Program-made: the position numbers and the translations under genes
Assembly (NCBI GenBank): GCA_025463135.1
Contig: JAOAPY010000041.1
Coordinates: 1-48,327 of the forward strand
Source of the DNA: Acidobacteriota bacterium
Lineage (GTDB): Bacteria; Acidobacteriota; Blastocatellia; Pyrinomonadales; Pyrinomonadaceae
Length of the DNA stretch: 48,327 bases
Direction: 5' to 3'
Part shown: piece after piece, positions 2,825 to 10,065 of the stretch
Position numbering within the stretch: the stretch's first letter is position 1
Layout: each line of letters opens with the position of its first letter
The notes under the pieces: generated by a model
Told to the model about the DNA's origin: nothing
The model's input: only the letters and a program-made list of their open reading frames with translations
Database searches by the model: none

Positions 2825-5224
2825 TTATTGATCGCGGAGAGCGGCAACGGGATCCACTTTAGTAGCTTTCCTGGCGGGAAGGTAGCTTGCCAGCAGTGCC
2901 ACCAGGCAAAGGAAAAGGAAGACGCCGGCAAAGGTCGGCAGGTCGGTCGGGCTGATGCTGTAGAGTAAGCTCGATAGAACTCGCGTTAAGATAAATGCCC
3001 CCACTAGTCCGATGGCCATGCCGAGAAGAGCGAGCGTCATCCCCTGGCCCACGATCAATTTCAGTACGCTACTCGCCTGCGCGCCCAGAGCCATGCGAAT
3101 AGCACTCTCATGCCGGCGCTGGTTGACGGAGTAGGCCATAATTCCATAAATCCCTATCGCTGCAAGCATCACCGCGATCGCGGCGAAGATGCTGAGCAAG
3201 GTCATATACAAGCGCGGCTGTGCCAGCGATCCAGCGAGCAGGCTCTTCATGGTTCTGACATTGTAAACAGGCTGATCCTTGTCCACCGCTTGTACCTCGT
3301 TGCGCACTGCGGCGGCCAGACTTGTAGGATCGGAAGTAGTGCGCACCACCAGGCTCAGAGCCGGCAAAGGAAACTGTGGATAAGGAATATACATTTCCGG
3401 CCGTGCTTCGCTACTCAAGCCGAAGTGCTTCACATTTCCCACCACTCCAACCACTAACACGTATGGGAAAGGATCCTTATCCTCGCCTATCTTCACTCGC
3501 TTGCCCAGCGGATCAACTCCCGGCCAAAAGCGATGGGCCATCGTCTCGTTAATAATTACTACGCCGGGGGAGTGATCATTATCCGCGTCGGTAAAGAGAC
3601 GGCCCTGCAAGAGTGGCGTCTGCATTGCGACAAAGTATTCCGGCGTGATGAGGCGAAACTCCGTAAGCGGTTCCTGTCCGGCTGCCCACGGCGCGTGGCC
3701 TTCAATCGTGAAAACTCCATTCACATTTGAGCCACTCAAAGGAAGATGGCTAATGGCGCCGGCATAGCGTACCCCGGGCAGGGTCTTGATTCGCTGAAGC
3801 ACCTGTTGGTAAAAGGCTGTCTGTTGCGGTCCGGTTGAATACTTGGATTCAGGTAGAGAGATTTGAAACGTCAGTACACTATCCGGATTGAAGCCGGGGT
3901 TAACCTTTTGCAAATGCAGAAAGCTATTTATTAAGAGACCAGAGCCGATCAATAGAATCAGCGCCAGCGCCACTTCAAGAATCACGAATAGATTGGACAA
4001 ACGATTTCGGCGAAACCCGGAACCCTTGCCACCTTCTTTGAGCGTCTCATTCAAGGTTGGCCGGGAGACCTGCAGCGCCGGTGTTAAGCCAAAAATTATT
4101 CCGGTTAATATGGAGACACCCAGCATGAAGCCTAGTACTCGAAGGTCAAGGCTGATCTTCCGCAGGTACAACGTGCTGTCGAAGCCAGCCAGAACCAGAT
4201 CTTTTCCAAGGAAGGCTATAAGCAGTCCCAGGACCCCACCCATCAACGCCAGCAACACGCTTTCAGTAAGCACTTGTCTGACAATTCGTCGACGGGTGGC
4301 GCCTAATGCAAGTCGGATGGCGATTTCCTTTTGCCGCCCTGTCGTGCGCGCCAGCAACAGGTTTGCGACATTGGCGCATGCGATCAGGAGAACAAAGCCC
4401 ACTACTCCCAGCAGAATAAGCAACTGCAGTCTGACATTTCCAATAAACTGCTCCTGCAGCGATACCACCTTCGCGCCCACATCCTTGTTGGTTTCAGCAT
4501 CCTGCTGCTGAAGACCGGCGGCGATAGTGTTCATTTCCGCCTGAGCTTGTTCCACCGTGACGCCAGGTTTCAGACGACCAAAGACTCTAAGGTAATGAAT
4601 CTTGCGGTTACTGTTTTGACGCGTAAGCGCGAGAGGCACCCACAGGTCCGCCTGCTCAACGAAGTGAAAGTCTCGACCCAGGACACCGATGATGTTATGA
4701 GTCTCGCCATTGAGCAGCAACTCACGCCCAACTATGTTTGGATCGAGACCAAAACGACTTTGCCAAAGACCGTAACTGATTATGGCAACATGATTACGGC
4801 CGGGCTCGTCTTCTTCTTTGATAAAGACTCGACCACGTGCAGGCTGAACTTTCAGTAACGGGAAAAGCTCGGAAGAAATGCGTGCGCCTTGGATCTGTTC
4901 GGAACTGCCGCTGCTGGTAAGAGTGAAGTTATCGTCGTTGTACGCTCCCATGCTTTGGAACACATGGTTGAGTTCTTTCCAGTCGAGAAAATCCTGGTTC
5001 AGCACAGGAGCTTTACTGAGTTGAGGTTCAGTCTCCCAGACCATCACCAGTTGGTCCGCTTCCTGGAACGGCAATGAACGCAGCAAGACGCCATTGACGA
5101 CGCTAAAGACCAAGCCGTTCGCGCCAATCCCGAGGGCTAACGTAAGTAAGGCTACAATTGTGAACAGCGGACTCTTTGCGAGCATCCGTACCGCGTATCG
5201 TAAGTCTTGCGAGAGAGCGTTCAC
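2825..5224 (-). CDS. ADOP-family ABC transporter permease (MacB/FtsX)
   Basis: A duplicated permease with two copies of the unit [TM helix - MacB-like periplasmic core - FtsX membrane domain]. The N-terminus has the family signature DLRYAVRMLAKSPLFT followed by a membrane helix. The first FtsX block (LLILLGVVGFVLLIACANVANLLLAR split over about residues 270-300) and the C-terminal one ending LPARKATKVDPVAALRDQ are both complete. The chosen start is the GTG at 5222-5224 because GGGAGGAG sits 8 nt upstream; this gives 799 aa, normal for ADOP permeases (about 800 aa). No ATPase is adjacent, as expected for these 'orphan' permeases. It follows the MBL gene on the same strand after about 180 bp, so a link to the peptide-modification genes is possible but unproven. 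Confidence 0.93.
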   Translation of the reverse strand: MNALSQDLRYAVRMLAKSPLFTIVALLTLALGIGANGLVFSVVNGVLLRSLPFQEADQLVMVWETEPQLSKAPVLNQDFLDWKELNHVFQSMGAYNDDNFTLTSSGSSEQIQGARISSELFPLLKVQPARGRVFIKEEDEPGRNHVAIISYGLWQSRFGLDPNIVGRELLLNGETHNIIGVLGRDFHFVEQADLWVPLALTRQNSNRKIHYLRVFGRLKPGVTVEQAQAEMNTIAAGLQQQDAETNKDVGAKVVSLQEQFIGNVRLQLLILLGVVGFVLLIACANVANLLLARTTGRQKEIAIRLALGATRRRIVRQVLTESVLLALMGGVLGLLIAFLGKDLVLAGFDSTLYLRKISLDLRVLGFMLGVSILTGIIFGLTPALQVSRPTLNETLKEGGKGSGFRRNRLSNLFVILEVALALILLIGSGLLINSFLHLQKVNPGFNPDSVLTFQISLPESKYSTGPQQTAFYQQVLQRIKTLPGVRYAGAISHLPLSGSNVNGVFTIEGHAPWAAGQEPLTEFRLITPEYFVAMQTPLLQGRLFTDADNDHSPGVVIINETMAHRFWPGVDPLGKRVKIGEDKDPFPYVLVVGVVGNVKHFGLSSEARPEMYIPYPQFPLPALSLVVRTTSDPTSLAAAVRNEVQAVDKDQPVYNVRTMKSLLAGSLAQPRLYMTLLSIFAAIAVMLAAIGIYGIMAYSVNQRRHESAIRMALGAQASSVLKLIVGQGMTLALLGMAIGLVGAFILTRVLSSLLYSISPTDLPTFAGVFLFLCLVALLASYLPARKATKVDPVAALRDQ

Positions 5225-5407
5225 GGTACCATCTCCTCCCGGTGGGTTATCAGCAACGACAAGGTGGTGGAGTTGCCCAGTATCATTATCACGATGCTGG
5301 TTTCGCGTCACGTTGCCACTCGGCAGTTTTCATCAGCGGGACTGCGGAGTCGATATTGGTCGCCAGCAGTCCTGAATCCCGCAATGATTGTGAAAGGGCT
5401 GCTAAAT

Positions 5408-6813
5408 TCAGGCCTTTGCCAGCGCCATCTTACACTCAGCAGGGTCAGGGGTGGAATAGAATTTAAGCCACTTCTCCGTCTCCCGGGAAAGAAAACTTTC
5501 CAGCAGTTGCAAGTAAGGGAACCGCAACTCGAGGAGATCGATCAACAGAGAGGCTTCGGGTTGAAGAATACCCAGGGGAGTGACCTCATAAATTTTATTG
5601 TAACGACGGTAATAGCCGCCGAGCATCACGTAGTCCCAACCTTTCTTGCCGGTAATGAGAGCGTAAAGACCAGAAGCGGTGATGAGGGCGAAAACATTGG
5701 CTTGAGGGTTCCGCCCAGGGTGAACCTTTGGCGTCTCTTCCGAAAAATCAATAAACCATTTTTGCGAACCATCCGGAAAAACTACTTCCAACTGATAGAT
5801 CACGCTCCATCGGCGATGTTCAGAAAAAGCATCCCGATGTTGGTCCAGGAAAGCTGGGAGTTTCGCTTCAAGCTCTTCAAAAATCGTATTTCTGATGTCC
5901 TCAAGCGGTTCACTATCCGGGTTGTGATCCACCAGGTCGTCCCCAATCTTCACCGGCAGGAAGTCTAATTCGTCACGGTCATCACGCAACATTTTAACGA
6001 ATTTGCTGGACCCGGGATAAGACTTGGGCCGCCCGTTGTTTAGTTGCAAAACATCTCCCGGGTCGAGTGTAAGGACACTGCCGCTCAAACTCGGACACGC
6101 TTTCACGGCATCGCTGCAGAACTGTTCGCGCGCTACCGGAAAGACAACCCGGTTGAGCCAGGAGGAACCGTTCACATATTTGAATCCGTTGGCCCCGGGA
6201 GCCATGGCGCCGGGCTTTATTAGACTGATGTTGTTAAGCAGTTTTCCATATTCGTCAAACGGGAATGACAAAGGCCGGTTCATCTGATAGCTCAATTCCA
6301 TCAGGTGCTGCCACGTCGCTAAAAGAAAATCGATTTTGGAATAGCGAGCCAACAAGAAATCGATGATAGGCGGACGAACAACTGTATCCACCTGATTCCA
6401 AAACGTACCTTCAGAGTCAGCGAAGACGACACCGAATTCCGGAACGTTGTTTTCCGAGCGCGTAGTGCAAATCCTCGTTTTGCCCAACTTGATTTCACTG
6501 AATTCTTTCAATGGATGTATTTTCGTGTAACCCAGCTGGCGCAGACATCTCTCTCTATCAAAGGGTCCTGGGGAATAAATACATCGACATCCTTCCGTAG
6601 AGACGCCAACGTCCGTAGATCAAAATGGTCCTGGTGCTTGTGTGATATAACGAGAAACTCATACTGCGGCAAGTTCTTATGAATAACTTCCCTTTTGGGA
6701 CTGACGTCAAATAGACCTTCCTGATGGGGATCCCAAAGCACCGGATCCATGAGGATCCCGCAGTCCTCGGTCTTTACGAAAATCGAGGCATGGCCAATCA
6801 TGTGTATTTCCAT
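5408..6813 (-). pseudogene. MBL-fold metallohydrolase, single-base frameshift
   Basis: The first segment (6813 to about 6555) opens an MBL-fold protein: LMDP at residues 22-25 and the metal motif HKHQDH at 58-63, as in UlaG-like hydrolases. That frame then runs into a stop at 6508-6510. The adjacent frame carries on without a gap (CLRQLGYTKIHPLKEF) and continues through 5408. The shift lies in a GAGAGAGA tract near 6555-6562 and equals one missing base; restored, the protein is about 468 aa. The start ATG has GAGG 6 nt upstream, 43 bp after the arginase stop. The C-terminal third (with GLYALITGKKGWDYVMLGGY) may be an SCP2-like module (weak). The shift could be a sequencing error, phase variation or decay. 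Confidence 0.75.
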
Positions 6814-6856
6814 TGTTTACCTCACTGAGCGGTTTGGGCGCCCTGGAACGGCAAGG

Positions 6857-8118
6857 CTACACAGTTTGCTTTTGCAGCTGCTCCTCCACGACAGCCTCGG
6901 CCTTTTGGCGTCGCATGATGGCCCCCAGAGAGTTGAGCAACAGGTGACAGGAGATGATGGAGGTGATTTGCCCGATGTCTTTTTCGGGATTAACCTCGAC
7001 CAAATCCAATCCAACCACATTGCGGGCGGACGCGACCGCTCTGAGAGCTGCTTTCAATTCTGAGAAGGAAAGGCCACCAGGCACGGGCGTGCTCGTTCCC
7101 GGTGCGCAAGATGGATCCAGCACGTCAATGTCGATAGAGATGTAACAAGGCAAAGATTCGGGTAAGGCCGCAACGATCGACTCCATCCCATTCTGACGTA
7201 GACTTGCAGGGGTGATCACGCTGATTTTTTCACCCGCCTGGTTGCATTCATCGTAGACCGAATAACCTCTCACTCCGACCTGGACCAACCTATAGATGTT
7301 AGGCAAACTCGCGATGTGCCGAGCGACGTTCTTATGATTACTACAGACACCAGGAACAAATTCTCCGTAATCGTTGTGGGCGTCAAGCCAAAGCACAGCC
7401 ATGGGTTGTTTCAATTGTAATCGCTCTACAATGGGAAATGTAATTGAATGGTCCCCCCCATGAACAAGGGAAACGAGCGCGCCTCGATGATCTCATCACA
7501 CACATCGCCGATGCGTTTGAAGATTGCCTCCGGACTTTCACCATAGCGAAACCATATATTGCCCCAATCACAAATAGTGACCCCTTCTAAAATCCGCTCC
7601 GCTTGTTCGACATCGATCCACCCCAGCGGCTTGCCCGTGAAAAAATCCAGATGACAATCGTAATCGTAGGAACAGACGCGAATCTCGTCCGGAGCTTTGC
7701 GCGCGCCGGCAGCCACACCGTTTCCCAAATCATATGGGACGCCAACAACCGACACGTCGGCCCGCATTTTGTCTCTTTGAACCTGGCTATTGAAAAGGCT
7801 ATGGGAACTGACGGACAGTTTTCTTTCAAGCAATTGGCCGGCCAGTTCATCATCCTGTTCCTCGGTGAGGAGAAACCCTTTCTCGATCAATAAGGCAACC
7901 TGCCCGCTTATTTTCTCTGCCAGATGCGGCGGAACGGCGTCATGAAAATACGCCGGACCGGTAAACTTATTACACAAGAATTGATACAAGGATTTTGTGA
8001 GCTCGAGACGGGAAAGAGTACGGGTGTGGAAAACAACTATCCGGTTATCGCCGATGGACTCTATCGCCAGTTTGGTCGACAGCACCAGGCGAGAGGAAAA
8101 CATTTTGTCGCCAGCCAT
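6857..8118 (-). pseudogene. Arginase-family enzyme with PqqD-like N-terminus, frameshifted at G7
   Basis: Two frames make one ureohydrolase of about 420 aa: 8118-7426 gives the N-terminus through FMGG, and 7453-6857 gives the rest. The junction is a run of seven G; eight would restore the canonical GGDHSITFP metal motif. The other manganese motifs are intact: WLDAHNDY and SIDIDVLDPSCAPGTSTPVP. The catalytic core begins near residue 117 (VSVVGVPYDLGNGVAAGAR). The extra first ~110 residues look like a winged-helix PqqD/RRE-type domain (strand-rich start, then LYQFLCNKFTG, then LIEKGFLLTEEQD), which would suit leader-peptide binding. ATG has GAGAGG about 7 nt upstream. Context suggests a peptide arginase (Arg to Orn in a precursor), although a free agmatinase/arginase is not excluded. 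Confidence 0.78.
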
Positions 8119-8166
8119 CTTAGAGCCTCTCGATTTGCAAGGTCGCCCGTTCCGGCAGAAACTCTT

Positions 8167-9117
8167 TTAAGCAAAATTCTCGCCCCGACTCGGTCTGCCA
8201 ATGAGCCTAGTGGTTAGGAAGCGCAGTCCAATTTGCAGGTACTTCCACATCAACAGCAGCGTGCGGAAGACAAAAATCGACAGACCCAGGAGAACCATGC
8301 TTCGCCATAGGACTTCAAGGAAACTGCTCAGAATTTGAAGAACCCCGATCGGACGCTCACTGAGAGCTCTCCAGAAGGCGACCCAGACGTGGGGATAAGC
8401 CGGGCCTAAGGAATAGATCACCTGGTAGAGCATGATCTTATAAAGGTAAAGAAAGAATACTGAACCCAGTAGAACGTAAGCTATCAAGGCGATGCTCGCG
8501 GTGCGACTTAGATTCAAAACTGGGGCCGTTTGAGCGCCGATGATGGGACGGCCTAACTTGAGCAGTCCGGATTTCATGAGTGCCAGGGATTGCTTTCGCA
8601 GATTAACTATTCCGAACAGGTCAGCCATCAACCAATATCCATCCATGCGAAGAAATGGATTGAGTGAACCGGCTATAGATAAATCAACCATGAAGAAACA
8701 ATAGAGCAGAACCGGAGACTTGAGCCGCCAAAAAAGCAGCAACAGCACCACCAACGAAAGCGATTGAAAATAGATCCCCGCAATGTCCATCATCGCCCGC
8801 TGTTTTCGGTTGAGTTTCCAAGCCTCTGAGACGTCTGTGTAGAAGACAAAAAAGTACACATACAATCCCCAACCGATTTCCGCATTCCTACACCCGTAGT
8901 AGGCAAAAGCCGAGGCGTGTCCCCACTCATGAATGAAAGCCGGAATGGTAGCGAGCAGCATGATGAAAATGACCTGAGGCGCGGTCAGGGTGTTTAGGTC
9001 GAAGGGATGATTGGGAAGGATCTTTGCGTAAAAGATCACATGGACGGCGACTATCACGGTCCAGCCGGCGATGAAAATCCACCGGTTGAAAAGCCATGAG
9101 ACCGAATTTTCTCTAAT
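8167..9117 (-). CDS. M50-family membrane zinc metalloprotease, 5'-truncated
   Basis: A multi-pass membrane protein with the site-2-protease motif HEWGH (residues 43-47 counted from a GTG at 9057) and the third-ligand region NPFLRMDGYWLMADLF. This matches the 'putative peptide zinc metalloprotease' (YydH-like) group often found in RiPP clusters. About seven hydrophobic segments follow. Coding continues upstream of 9057 (SVSWLFNRWIFIAGWT) to about 9117, where similarity ends and a stop occurs at 9127-9129, so the N-terminal domain is missing. It ends 48 bp before the arginase ATG, in the same direction. Residual expression from GTG 9057 would retain the catalytic motifs. Confidence 0.82.
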   Translation of the reverse strand: MRENSVSWLFNRWIFIAGWTVIVAVHVIFYAKILPNHPFDLNTLTAPQVIFIMLLATIPAFIHEWGHASAFAYYGCRNAEIGWGLYVYFFVFYTDVSEAWKLNRKQRAMMDIAGIYFQSLSLVVLLLLFWRLKSPVLLYCFFMVDLSIAGSLNPFLRMDGYWLMADLFGIVNLRKQSLALMKSGLLKLGRPIIGAQTAPVLNLSRTASIALIAYVLLGSVFFLYLYKIMLYQVIYSLGPAYPHVWVAFWRALSERPIGVLQILSSFLEVLWRSMVLLGLSIFVFRTLLLMWKYLQIGLRFLTTRLIGRPSRGENFA

Positions 9118-9660
9118 TTGAAGTTCCTAAAAAAGAGAAAAGAGGACTTTGGCGTAACGATCCGCATCAACTTCGATCAGGAAAACTATCCAGACCTTGA
9201 AGAATTCATTCTGGTACTGCAGCGAGAGTTCGGCGCAGACGAAAGGTTCAAGATAGCCTTTAACCCGGTGGGCCGCTGGGGCGGCGCAAACGATGCTAAC
9301 CTCGCGGTGTGCGGTCTGAACGAAACGAGCCCCTTGAGCACCAGGCTGCAACGATTCTCTTCGGACAAAGGCCTGAACGTAGCCGGAACATTGGAGGACT
9401 CAACGAACCCGGGAAGCCAGGTTTGCTATGCAGCGCGTCCTTACAACTTCATCGTTGGCGCTCACGGTCAACTAGCCGCCCTTAAGCACCGGCAGATCCA
9501 AAGTGAGACACTATTTGAGCCACGACTCTTCGATCGCTGCTGGGGGAAGACTTTGACTGGACTGCGGCTGCAATTAGTAAGTGCTCGATCGGGAGAGATC
9601 AATCAATCACTTTGGGAGGTGACAAGGTCTCTAAGGTCATCTTACATAAGGACACATTAG
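9100..9660 (+). pseudogene. Radical SAM/SPASM maturase, internal fragment
   Basis: Residues from about 9118 read VTIRINFDQENYPD, the conserved step after the radical SAM barrel core, followed by KIAFNPVGRWGG and VCYAARPYNFIVGAHGQL, which is the start of a SPASM domain. The AdoMet cluster motif CxxxCxxC is absent because the gene begins at the junction near 9110. After about 9480 the remaining SPASM cysteines are replaced by unrelated sequence. It is thus cut at both ends. It points away from the M50 gene, whose 5' end is lost at the same spot. Together they suggest a former rSAM + M50 operon broken by inversion or deletion. Confidence 0.72.
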
Positions 9661-9705: not shown

Positions 9706-10065
9706 CTATTTAATCGTGCTTTTGGCTACTGTTTTAGCGGTGTTGGAAAAATGGCGGGCTCGATACACTACAGGCGTCAGGCCATAGGCTCGTTTGAAGT
9801 CACGCGCGAACTGGCTCTTATTTTTGATCCCAGCCTTGAGCATAATCTCTTTGATACTCAAGAAAGTGGTCTCGATCAGGTTTCTGGCCTGCTGCATTCT
9901 TAGGGTGTTGCGATAATGCGTCGGCGACTGTCCAGTTTCTGCTTTAAAAACGTGCCTCAAACGCGACGGAGAAAGATTGACGATTTTTGCTAATTCCTCG
10001 ATAGAAAAGTCACTTCTTGGGTCGCTTTCCAGAAGCGCGATGATAATGTGTACTCTAGGTTCCAT
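9706..10065 (-). CDS. AraC-family HTH transcriptional regulator, stand-alone domain
   Basis: A 119-aa protein made almost entirely of the two-helix-turn-helix AraC DNA-binding unit: first HTH around IEELAKIVNLSPSRLRHVF, second around IKEIMLKAGIKNKSQFARDF, closing with GLTPVVYRARH. There is no effector-binding domain, so if functional it would bind DNA constitutively or act with a partner. It lies beyond the radical SAM fragment, convergent with it. It could have controlled the peptide-modification genes, but no operator was identified. Confidence 0.88.
   Translation of the reverse strand: MEPRVHIIIALLESDPRSDFSIEELAKIVNLSPSRLRHVFKAETGQSPTHYRNTLRMQQARNLIETTFLSIKEIMLKAGIKNKSQFARDFKRAYGLTPVVYRARHFSNTAKTVAKSTIK

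What the first reader, a model, noticed from the sequence alone, without database searches (positions are those of the whole stretch)
5408..9660. Candidate peptide-modification (RiPP-like) locus: M50 peptidase, arginase, MBL hydrolase and radical SAM/SPASM
Seen: M50 HEWGH protein, arginase-family enzyme and MBL hydrolase in one minus-strand row with 43-48 bp gaps, next to a radical SAM/SPASM fragment. Known: radical SAM/SPASM enzymes, YydH-like M50 peptidases, PqqB-like MBL proteins and OspR-type peptide arginases each occur in ribosomal peptide pathways. I do not know this exact set as a described system. No precursor peptide gene was found; it may lie with the missing 5' parts.
Basis: partly seen in the sequence, partly recalled or inferred. 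Interest (0 to 1): 0.8.

Follow-up and report, generated by a model that had tools for sequence, protein, structure and literature searches.

The report
Broken gene cluster for modified peptide
This stretch holds the broken remains of a gene set that probably built a chemically modified small peptide; related, intact-looking sets in other bacteria carry candidate precursor genes and sometimes an enzyme of the kind that turns arginine into ornithine.

Summary
A minus-strand row M50–arginase–MBL (gaps 48 and 43 bp) lies beside a weakly recognised radical SAM/SPASM piece. All four genes are damaged: the M50 lacks about 140 N-terminal residues, arginase and MBL are each split over two frames, and the radical SAM piece is internal and inverted.

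Two independent lines support the RiPP reading. (1) The MBL groups with proteins of cyanobacterial Nif11/proteusin/LanM clusters (16 of 19 cyanobacterial GTDB loci, 2 of 2 plasmid loci). (2) The M50 is in a 7-row clade; 5 of its other 6 members lie near short ORFs with one shared leader (P-[LI]-N … E-[LI]-E-x-RLE). Two of these five clusters encode a UPF0489 (OspR-type) peptide-arginase relative, and only those two have Arg after the leader motif. Against: inside that clade the window M50 lies outside the five and nearest to the one member without RiPP genes.

So M50 + radical SAM + arginase recurs, but the window has another arginase family (PF00491) with an unassigned N-terminal domain. In relatives the precursor lies where the window is truncated. 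No intact copy of the four-gene set was found. Peptide arginase activity is inferred.

The parts
8167..9063 (-). M50-type metalloprotease, N-terminally truncated (about 140 profile positions missing); HEWGH and MDGYW present
   Evidence: daptide_HExxH 5.6e-22; profile positions 141-440 of 440 only; clade
7426..8118 (-). Arginase (PF00491) N-terminal half, with an extra ~110-residue N-terminal domain (7770-8118) of no known family; it looks RRE-like to the eye only
   Evidence: 42.4 bits, residues 120-222; no Pfam hit for 7770-8118; single-sequence model, mean pLDDT 32.1: uninformative
6857..7474 (-). Arginase C-terminal half in another frame; GGDHS, DAHND and DIDVLDP in this frame
   Evidence: 138.9 bits; three-frame translation; profile 86-276 of 280 at 6932-7474
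6550..6813 (-). MBL-fold protein, N-terminal piece with the HxHxDH site (HKHQDH)
   Evidence: profile 1-88, E 6.0e-43
5408..6553 (-). MBL-fold protein, C-terminal piece in another frame, 41-51% identical to cyanobacterial proteins
   Evidence: profile 87-465, E 1.4e-155; tree
9064..9117 (.). Proposed rearrangement junction: M50 homology stops and an inverted radical SAM piece begins; in relatives the M50 N-terminus and the precursor lie on this side
   Evidence: inference from the relatives' gene order
9118..9480 (+). Radical SAM/SPASM internal fragment (positions 233-338 of 438 of TIGR04463); both ends missing
   Evidence: E 7.7e-4, below cut-off; weak

Best explanation
The locus is a decayed RiPP gene cluster, assembled from parts of different origin. 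Proposed pathway of the intact ancestor: a short precursor was made immediately upstream of the M50 gene, probably with a leader of the PLN...EELExRLEM type; a radical SAM/SPASM enzyme modified the core; the arginase turned peptidyl arginine into ornithine; the MBL-fold enzyme made a further, unknown change; the M50 cut the peptide at the membrane. Shown here: gene content and damage, the RiPP setting of the MBL and M50 relatives, the shared leader, and the recurrence of M50 + radical SAM + arginase with a different arginase family. Inferred: that the window's precursor had this leader, that the arginase acted on a peptide, the order of steps, and that an inversion/deletion at about 9,064-9,117 removed the precursor, the M50 N-terminus and most of the radical SAM gene.
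For: MBL: 29 GTDB loci and 2 plasmids; 16 of 19 cyanobacterial GTDB loci and 2 of 2 plasmid loci show RiPP precursor, LanM or NHLP-export genes in the held flank (L010 is identical to plasmid locus L004, and L014 and L016 share a contig); the window MBL falls on the cyanobacterial side of a 17-to-5 split, 100/100. M50: 7-row clade, 100/99; short ORFs with the leader motif near 5 of its 6 non-window members; 7 such ORFs (30-120 aa) in 183,220 bp of 11 M50 loci, 0 in 592,267 bp of 35 control loci, 0 in the M50 loci read backwards; all 7 start with ATG and 6 of 7 have AGGAG just upstream. Order radical SAM-precursor-M50 in L074, L075 and L094. UPF0489 gene in L074 and L093 (L093 28.3 bits, cut-off 27; L074 17.3 bits, below it), both with EHSS, DAHLD and DIDxDYF. 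Arg after the leader motif: L074 and L093 yes; L075, L091 and L094 none. Enzymes of PF12640, and KgrD of PF00491, are reported to act on RiPP precursors (PMC12703449, parts 1 and 2 of 5 read).
Against: Within the 7-row clade the five RiPP-linked M50s form their own group (83/83); the window M50 lies outside it, and its nearest row by path is L044 (= L073), whose neighbourhood has neither leader motif nor radical SAM; long branches make the placing unsure. No precursor remains in the window and the leader DNA pattern is absent from the genome (the pattern can miss variants, L075's among them). No genome was found with this arginase beside M50, radical SAM or MBL: 1 of 395 other phylum genomes has a match, 37% and partial; 0 of 292 in the phylum of G511 and 0 of 169 in that of G535, searches which the tool itself says show nothing without a positive control. 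None of the 31 MBL loci has the M50, arginase or radical SAM piece in its held flank. The radical SAM identity is weak. The motif was first seen by eye in L074 and L091, so 4 of the 7 ORFs are independent of its making. The Arg/arginase link rests on 5 clusters.
Confidence: 0.7

Rival explanations
1. The cluster works in the cell; the two frameshifts are sequencing or assembly errors at short repeats.
For: Both breaks lie at or near slippage-prone repeats, a run of G and a GA repeat; metal-site residues are kept and the MBL remains 41-51% identical to intact relatives; long ORFs nearby are open.
Against: The M50 has no N-terminal part and the radical SAM piece is internal and inverted, which base-calling errors do not give. 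No precursor is present.
Confidence: 0.13
2. The arginase is a ureohydrolase for a small guanidino compound (agmatine, or a natural-product intermediate as for proclavaminate amidinohydrolase) and lies beside RiPP genes for another reason.
For: The best solved-structure match of its C-half is proclavaminate amidinohydrolase (1gq6, E 2.4e-22), then agmatinases; NCBIfam agmatinase models match both halves below cut-off. No peptide substrate has been shown.
Against: It lies 48 and 43 bp from two RiPP-linked genes on one strand; it has an extra N-terminal stretch; the genome has two other full-length PF00491 genes; arginase-type genes recur in the sister clusters L074 and L093.
Confidence: 0.25
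3. Remnants of two different RiPP clusters, a cyanobacterial-type MBL module and an M50 module, brought together by gene transfer and never one pathway.
For: The MBL C-piece matches none of the other 161 class genomes, and its profile gives only partial matches (positions 3-117) in 4 of the other 226 phylum genomes; no locus read here holds both.
Against: Same strand, gaps of 48 and 43 bp, similar G+C (M50 0.496, arginase 0.515, MBL 0.491) suggest one transcription unit.
Confidence: 0.15

Closest known systems
PF12640 (UPF0489) peptide-arginase pathways: OspR, FlmR/OhkR (PMC12703449, parts 1-2 of 5 read)
   Same: An arginase-fold enzyme in a RiPP cluster with short precursors; relatives of this family occur in the sister clusters L074 and L093 beside radical SAM genes.
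   Different: The window enzyme is PF00491, not PF12640; the sister clusters' leader (PLN...EELExRLEM) is not one of the precursor types named in the text read (NHLP, Nif11, SCIFF, SCCRRSCN, DD(I/V)LF, MGXRRSSE).
Enteropeptin cluster with KgrD, a PF00491 arginase (as told in PMC12703449)
   Same: A PF00491 arginase that makes ornithine in a RiPP.
   Different: KgrD is said to need a thiomorpholine in its substrate; no sequence comparison with KgrD was made here, and I did not see its cluster's full gene list.
Daptide and epipeptide M50 proteases (NF041824, NF058609; EpeP in passages of PMC10885120)
   Same: Best NCBIfam matches of the window M50 and of L074 and L094.
   Different: All far below the curated cut-offs (window 78.4 of 300 and 40.5 of 225 bits); other precursors and partners.
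Cyanobacterial Nif11/proteusin clusters with this MBL, e.g. Nostoc sp. C057 plasmid (L004)
   Same: Same MBL group, 49.6% identity, 95% of the C-piece covered.
   Different: No related M50, PF00491 arginase or matching radical SAM piece in the held flank.
CmlA / FrsH, MBL-fold hydroxylases (nature as diiron enzymes from entry titles and recall)
   Same: Among the first Foldseek rows for the model of the L010 homologue (E 1.1e-10 and 1.2e-9); the family keeps HxHxDH, Glu125 and Asp142 but no conserved further His.
   Different: TM-score about 0.39 by query length; RNase J and many other MBLs rank level or above by Z. A lead only.

Membership tests
PF12640 peptide arginases (OspR family) | Match to PF12640 | tested here: not met
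   Window arginase pieces match PF00491 and not PF12640; the genome has no PF12640 match at E 1e-3.
PF00491 ureohydrolases | Pfam match above cut-off, metal-site motifs | tested here: met
   42.4 and 138.9 bits, cut-off 22; GGDHS, DAHND, DIDVLDP (motifs as such recalled).
Agmatinase / arginase equivalogs | NCBIfam curated cut-off | tested here: inconclusive
   TIGR01230 38.6 and 91.9 bits for the two pieces against 174.3; the pieces were scored apart.
RiPP clusters of the M50 / EELExRLEM group | M50 within the five RiPP-linked members | tested here: inconclusive
   In the 7-row clade (100/99) but outside the five (83/83); long branches.
RiPP clusters of the M50 / EELExRLEM group | Precursor with the shared leader near the M50 | tested here: not met
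   None in the window or, by DNA pattern, in the genome; the place where it would lie is truncated.
RiPP clusters of the M50 / EELExRLEM group | Radical SAM/SPASM maturase | tested here: inconclusive
   Fragment with a weak TIGR04463 match.
Daptide / epipeptide M50 (NF041824, NF058609) | NCBIfam curated cut-off | tested here: not met
   78.4 of 300 and 40.5 of 225 bits on a truncated protein; full-length L074 101.1 of 300.
Cyanobacterial RiPP-linked MBL group | Placed with the group in a tree, both halves matched by its profile | tested here: met
   17-to-5 split 100/100; profile 1-88 and 87-465 (the window C-piece was one of the 22 rows of that profile).
Peptide arginase (by activity) | Arg to Orn on a precursor peptide | not testable with these tools
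   needs an experiment
RRE (PqqD-like) domain on the arginase | Winged-helix RRE fold | tested here: inconclusive
   No Pfam hit; model mean pLDDT 32.1. Resemblance by eye only.
CmlA-like MBL hydroxylases | Fold and metal ligands | tested here: inconclusive
   ligands were not superposed.

The most novel reading that the evidence does not exclude
A RiPP group, not described in the papers searched, in which one precursor leader type (PLN...EELExRLEM) and one kind of M50 protease are combined with exchangeable radical SAM enzymes and with arginases of two unrelated families (PF12640 and PF00491); in the window's version the PF00491 arginase brings its own leader-binding domain and works on peptidyl arginine, and an MBL-fold protein with a CmlA-like metal site oxidises the product.
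Probability: 0.22. Interest if true: 0.75.

Novelty: new variant of a known kind. Interest (0 to 1): 0.5.

Why it matters
[quoted passage not shown] A leader shared by several clusters, with Arg after the leader motif only where an arginase gene is present (2 of 5 clusters), gives ready co-expression tests. If the window's ancestor worked as proposed, the PF00491 family would have entered peptide modification once more besides KgrD, and an uncharacterised MBL family would find a place in RiPP maturation.

Tried and rejected
Considered and set aside: a plain polyamine operon (no such gene seen in the row; two other PF00491 genes in the genome); a phage origin (no PHROGs match at E 0.01 for the two proteins tried, the radical SAM piece and the MBL C-piece; pattern-based viral scans for M50 and arginase N-half gave no relative); the Embleya plasmid hit (an agmatinase-like ORF by eye); the larger M50 proteins of the phylum as models (separate 28-row clade; no leader motif in the 5 of those neighbourhoods that I scanned, L077, L078, L079, L092, L095); the PF12640 match of G038 (an in-frame TGA; no match to the window's proteins around it).

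Led nowhere: AlphaFold of the arginase N-half without relatives; the search for a precursor in window and genome (the pattern misses leaders with E-I-E or another last residue); comparing the radical SAM fragment with related clusters. Papers: nine searches, listings and abstract starts seen; PMC12703449 parts 1-2 of 5 read; PMC11583998, PMC7470986 and PMC10885120 by passages only. 'Not described' means these searches in that library.

By the queries, 13 of 31 MBL loci (L013, L017, L028 and ten non-cyanobacterial ones) showed no precursor, LanM or NHLP exporter. The 35 control loci are mostly cyanobacterial and include two plasmid M50 loci, L008 and L009. On re-reading the calls I lowered the main confidence from 0.75 to 0.7 and the novel case from 0.25 to 0.22, and raised the small-substrate rival from 0.20 to 0.25 and lowered the 'intact' rival from 0.15 to 0.13, because the tree puts the window M50 outside the five RiPP-linked members.
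Full report
What is there. The window is the whole of contig C12 (48,327 bp) of a 6.48 Mb genome of 56 contigs. No call names the organism; that it is an acidobacterium is my inference from gene content. On the minus strand lie an M50 metalloprotease (8167-9063), a PF00491 arginase (8118-6857) and an MBL-fold protein (6813-5408), with gaps of 48 and 43 bp. On the plus strand at 9118-~9480 is a piece that resembles the middle of a radical SAM/SPASM maturase (TIGR04463, E 7.7e-4, below cut-off; no Pfam hit).

The genes are broken. Three-frame translation and profile matches show the arginase in two frames that meet near 7,430-7,474 and the MBL in two frames that meet near 6,550. The M50 matches positions 141-440 of the 440-position profile of three M50s (the window's among them), so some 140 residues are missing; in L074 that part weakly resembles PqqD (E 0.01). 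The radical SAM piece lacks both ends and points the other way. The M50 keeps HEWGH and MDGYW, the arginase GGDHS, DAHND and DIDVLDP, the MBL HKHQDH. I read this as fairly recent decay after a rearrangement at about 9,064-9,117. Sequencing error could explain the two frameshifts but not the truncations.

The MBL. Relatives came from two cyanobacterial plasmids and 29 GTDB loci. In 16 of 19 cyanobacterial GTDB loci and both plasmid loci the held flank has Nif11 or NHLP precursors, LanM or NHLP export genes; L013, L017 and L028 show none of these, nor do the ten non-cyanobacterial loci, two of which have a weak SagB match. L010 is identical to L004, and L014 and L016 are one contig, so the loci are not all independent. 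In the tree the window falls on the cyanobacterial side of a 17-to-5 split (100/100); its place inside is open. Apart from the window's own genome, the C-piece matched 0 of 161 class genomes, and the profile gave partial matches (positions 3-117) in 4 of 226 phylum genomes. A model of the L010 homologue (mean pLDDT 82.4) matches MBL folds in general, with CmlA, NAPE-PLD, isothiocyanate hydrolase and FrsH at the head of Foldseek's list and RNase J at the head of VIA-align's. Among columns conserved in 85% or more of the rows are HxHxDH, Glu120, Glu125, Asp132 and Asp142, but no His after the HxHxDH site. Whether the protein is an oxygenase is open.

The M50. 37 of 396 phylum genomes (own included) match the window protein at E 1e-12, and 5 of 158 class genomes (own included) match the three-row profile at E 1e-20. 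A tree of 35 rows splits into a 7-row clade of 421-485-residue proteins and the window (100/99), and a 28-row clade mostly of longer proteins. I read the neighbourhoods of all six non-window members of the first clade. Similar short ORFs caught the eye in L074 and L091; a regular expression made from them then also found ORFs in L075, L093 and L094: 7 ORFs in 183,220 bp of 11 M50 loci, none in 592,267 bp of 35 control loci (mostly cyanobacterial), none in the M50 loci read backwards, none in the window. They share E-[LI]-E-x-RLE-[ML], and all but L091's also P-[LI]-N; L074 and L075 each have two copies with identical leaders and different tails. In four of the five clusters the nearest such ORF ends 42-431 bp before the M50 frame; in L075 it is 2.2 kb away. 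This is what RiPP precursors look like. Against a simple reading: the five RiPP-linked M50s form a group of their own (83/83) that leaves out the window and L044 (= L073); L044 is the row nearest the window by path, and its neighbourhood has an acyltransferase and, by eye, fatty-acid-type genes, but no leader motif or radical SAM gene. By BLAST the window M50's closest stretches are in L075 (41% over 127) and L094 (41% over 143). Long branches leave this unsettled.

Arginases in the sister clusters. L074 and L093 share, beside the M50, two radical SAM genes and a protein with UPF0489 (PF12640) and TPR repeats (29% identical over 475 residues): L093 28.3 bits, over the cut-off of 27; L074 17.3 bits, under it; L093 also 17.6 bits to the FlmR/OhkR peptide-arginase model, cut-off 350. 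Both have EHSS near the N-terminus, DAHLD and DIDxDYF, variants of the three motifs quoted in PMC12703449. Arg occurs after the leader motif in their candidate precursors and in none of the other three clusters. With five clusters this is a hint, not a proof.

The window arginase. It is PF00491 with about 110 extra N-terminal residues. Its N-half as a query gave, besides itself, one 37% partial match in 396 phylum genomes (L002, next to an ORF that looks HPr-kinase-like to the eye), four weak matches (E 3e-5 to 7e-5) in 27 genomes that carry the MBL, none in 292 genomes of the phylum of G511 and none in 169 of that of G535; the tool warns that these last two empty answers have no positive control. 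The genome has two other full-length PF00491 genes. The nearest solved structure to the C-half is proclavaminate amidinohydrolase. So neither its substrate nor its usual neighbours are known; peptide arginase is my preferred reading because of its row and of the sister clusters.

Conclusion. The RiPP reading is supported. The locus looks like a broken, mosaic relative of a RiPP group that I did not find described. The exact four-gene set was not found intact.

Noticed in passing
window 9706-10065 (-); L092 2427-2756 (+): A short AraC-type HTH protein (119 aa) flanks the window locus; a similar one (110 aa, by eye) lies about 2.8 kb from the M50 of L092, and L075 has a 304-aa protein with a like N-terminus.
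   Followed up: no
L092 5558-10963: In the window's family (G442), an M50 (434 aa) lies beside an MbnB/TglH/ChrH-type enzyme (PF05114, E 5.3e-90) and a protein that looks like asparagine synthase: a different RiPP-like cluster.
   Followed up: partly
L094 4234-11896: A Cys-rich candidate precursor (11 Cys, no Arg after the leader motif) beside a radical SAM protein close to rSAM_vs_C_rich (E 1e-26), an M50, a second HExxH protein and a squalene-hopene-cyclase-like protein.
   Followed up: partly
L074 3059-12934: An apparently intact cluster: B12-type radical SAM, two radical SAM genes with SPASM-type ends, two precursor candidates with identical leaders, M50 and a UPF0489-TPR protein; L093 has a rearranged counterpart.
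   Followed up: partly
L082 8714-9223 (G038 C36): A PF12640 match with an in-frame TGA in the window's own family, with nothing like the window's proteins beside it.
   Followed up: partly
window 2825-5311 (-): MacB/FtsX-type permease next to the locus; proteins that look similar lie in L074, L075, L091 and L093, but such permeases are common in this phylum (recalled), so linkage is unproven.
   Followed up: no
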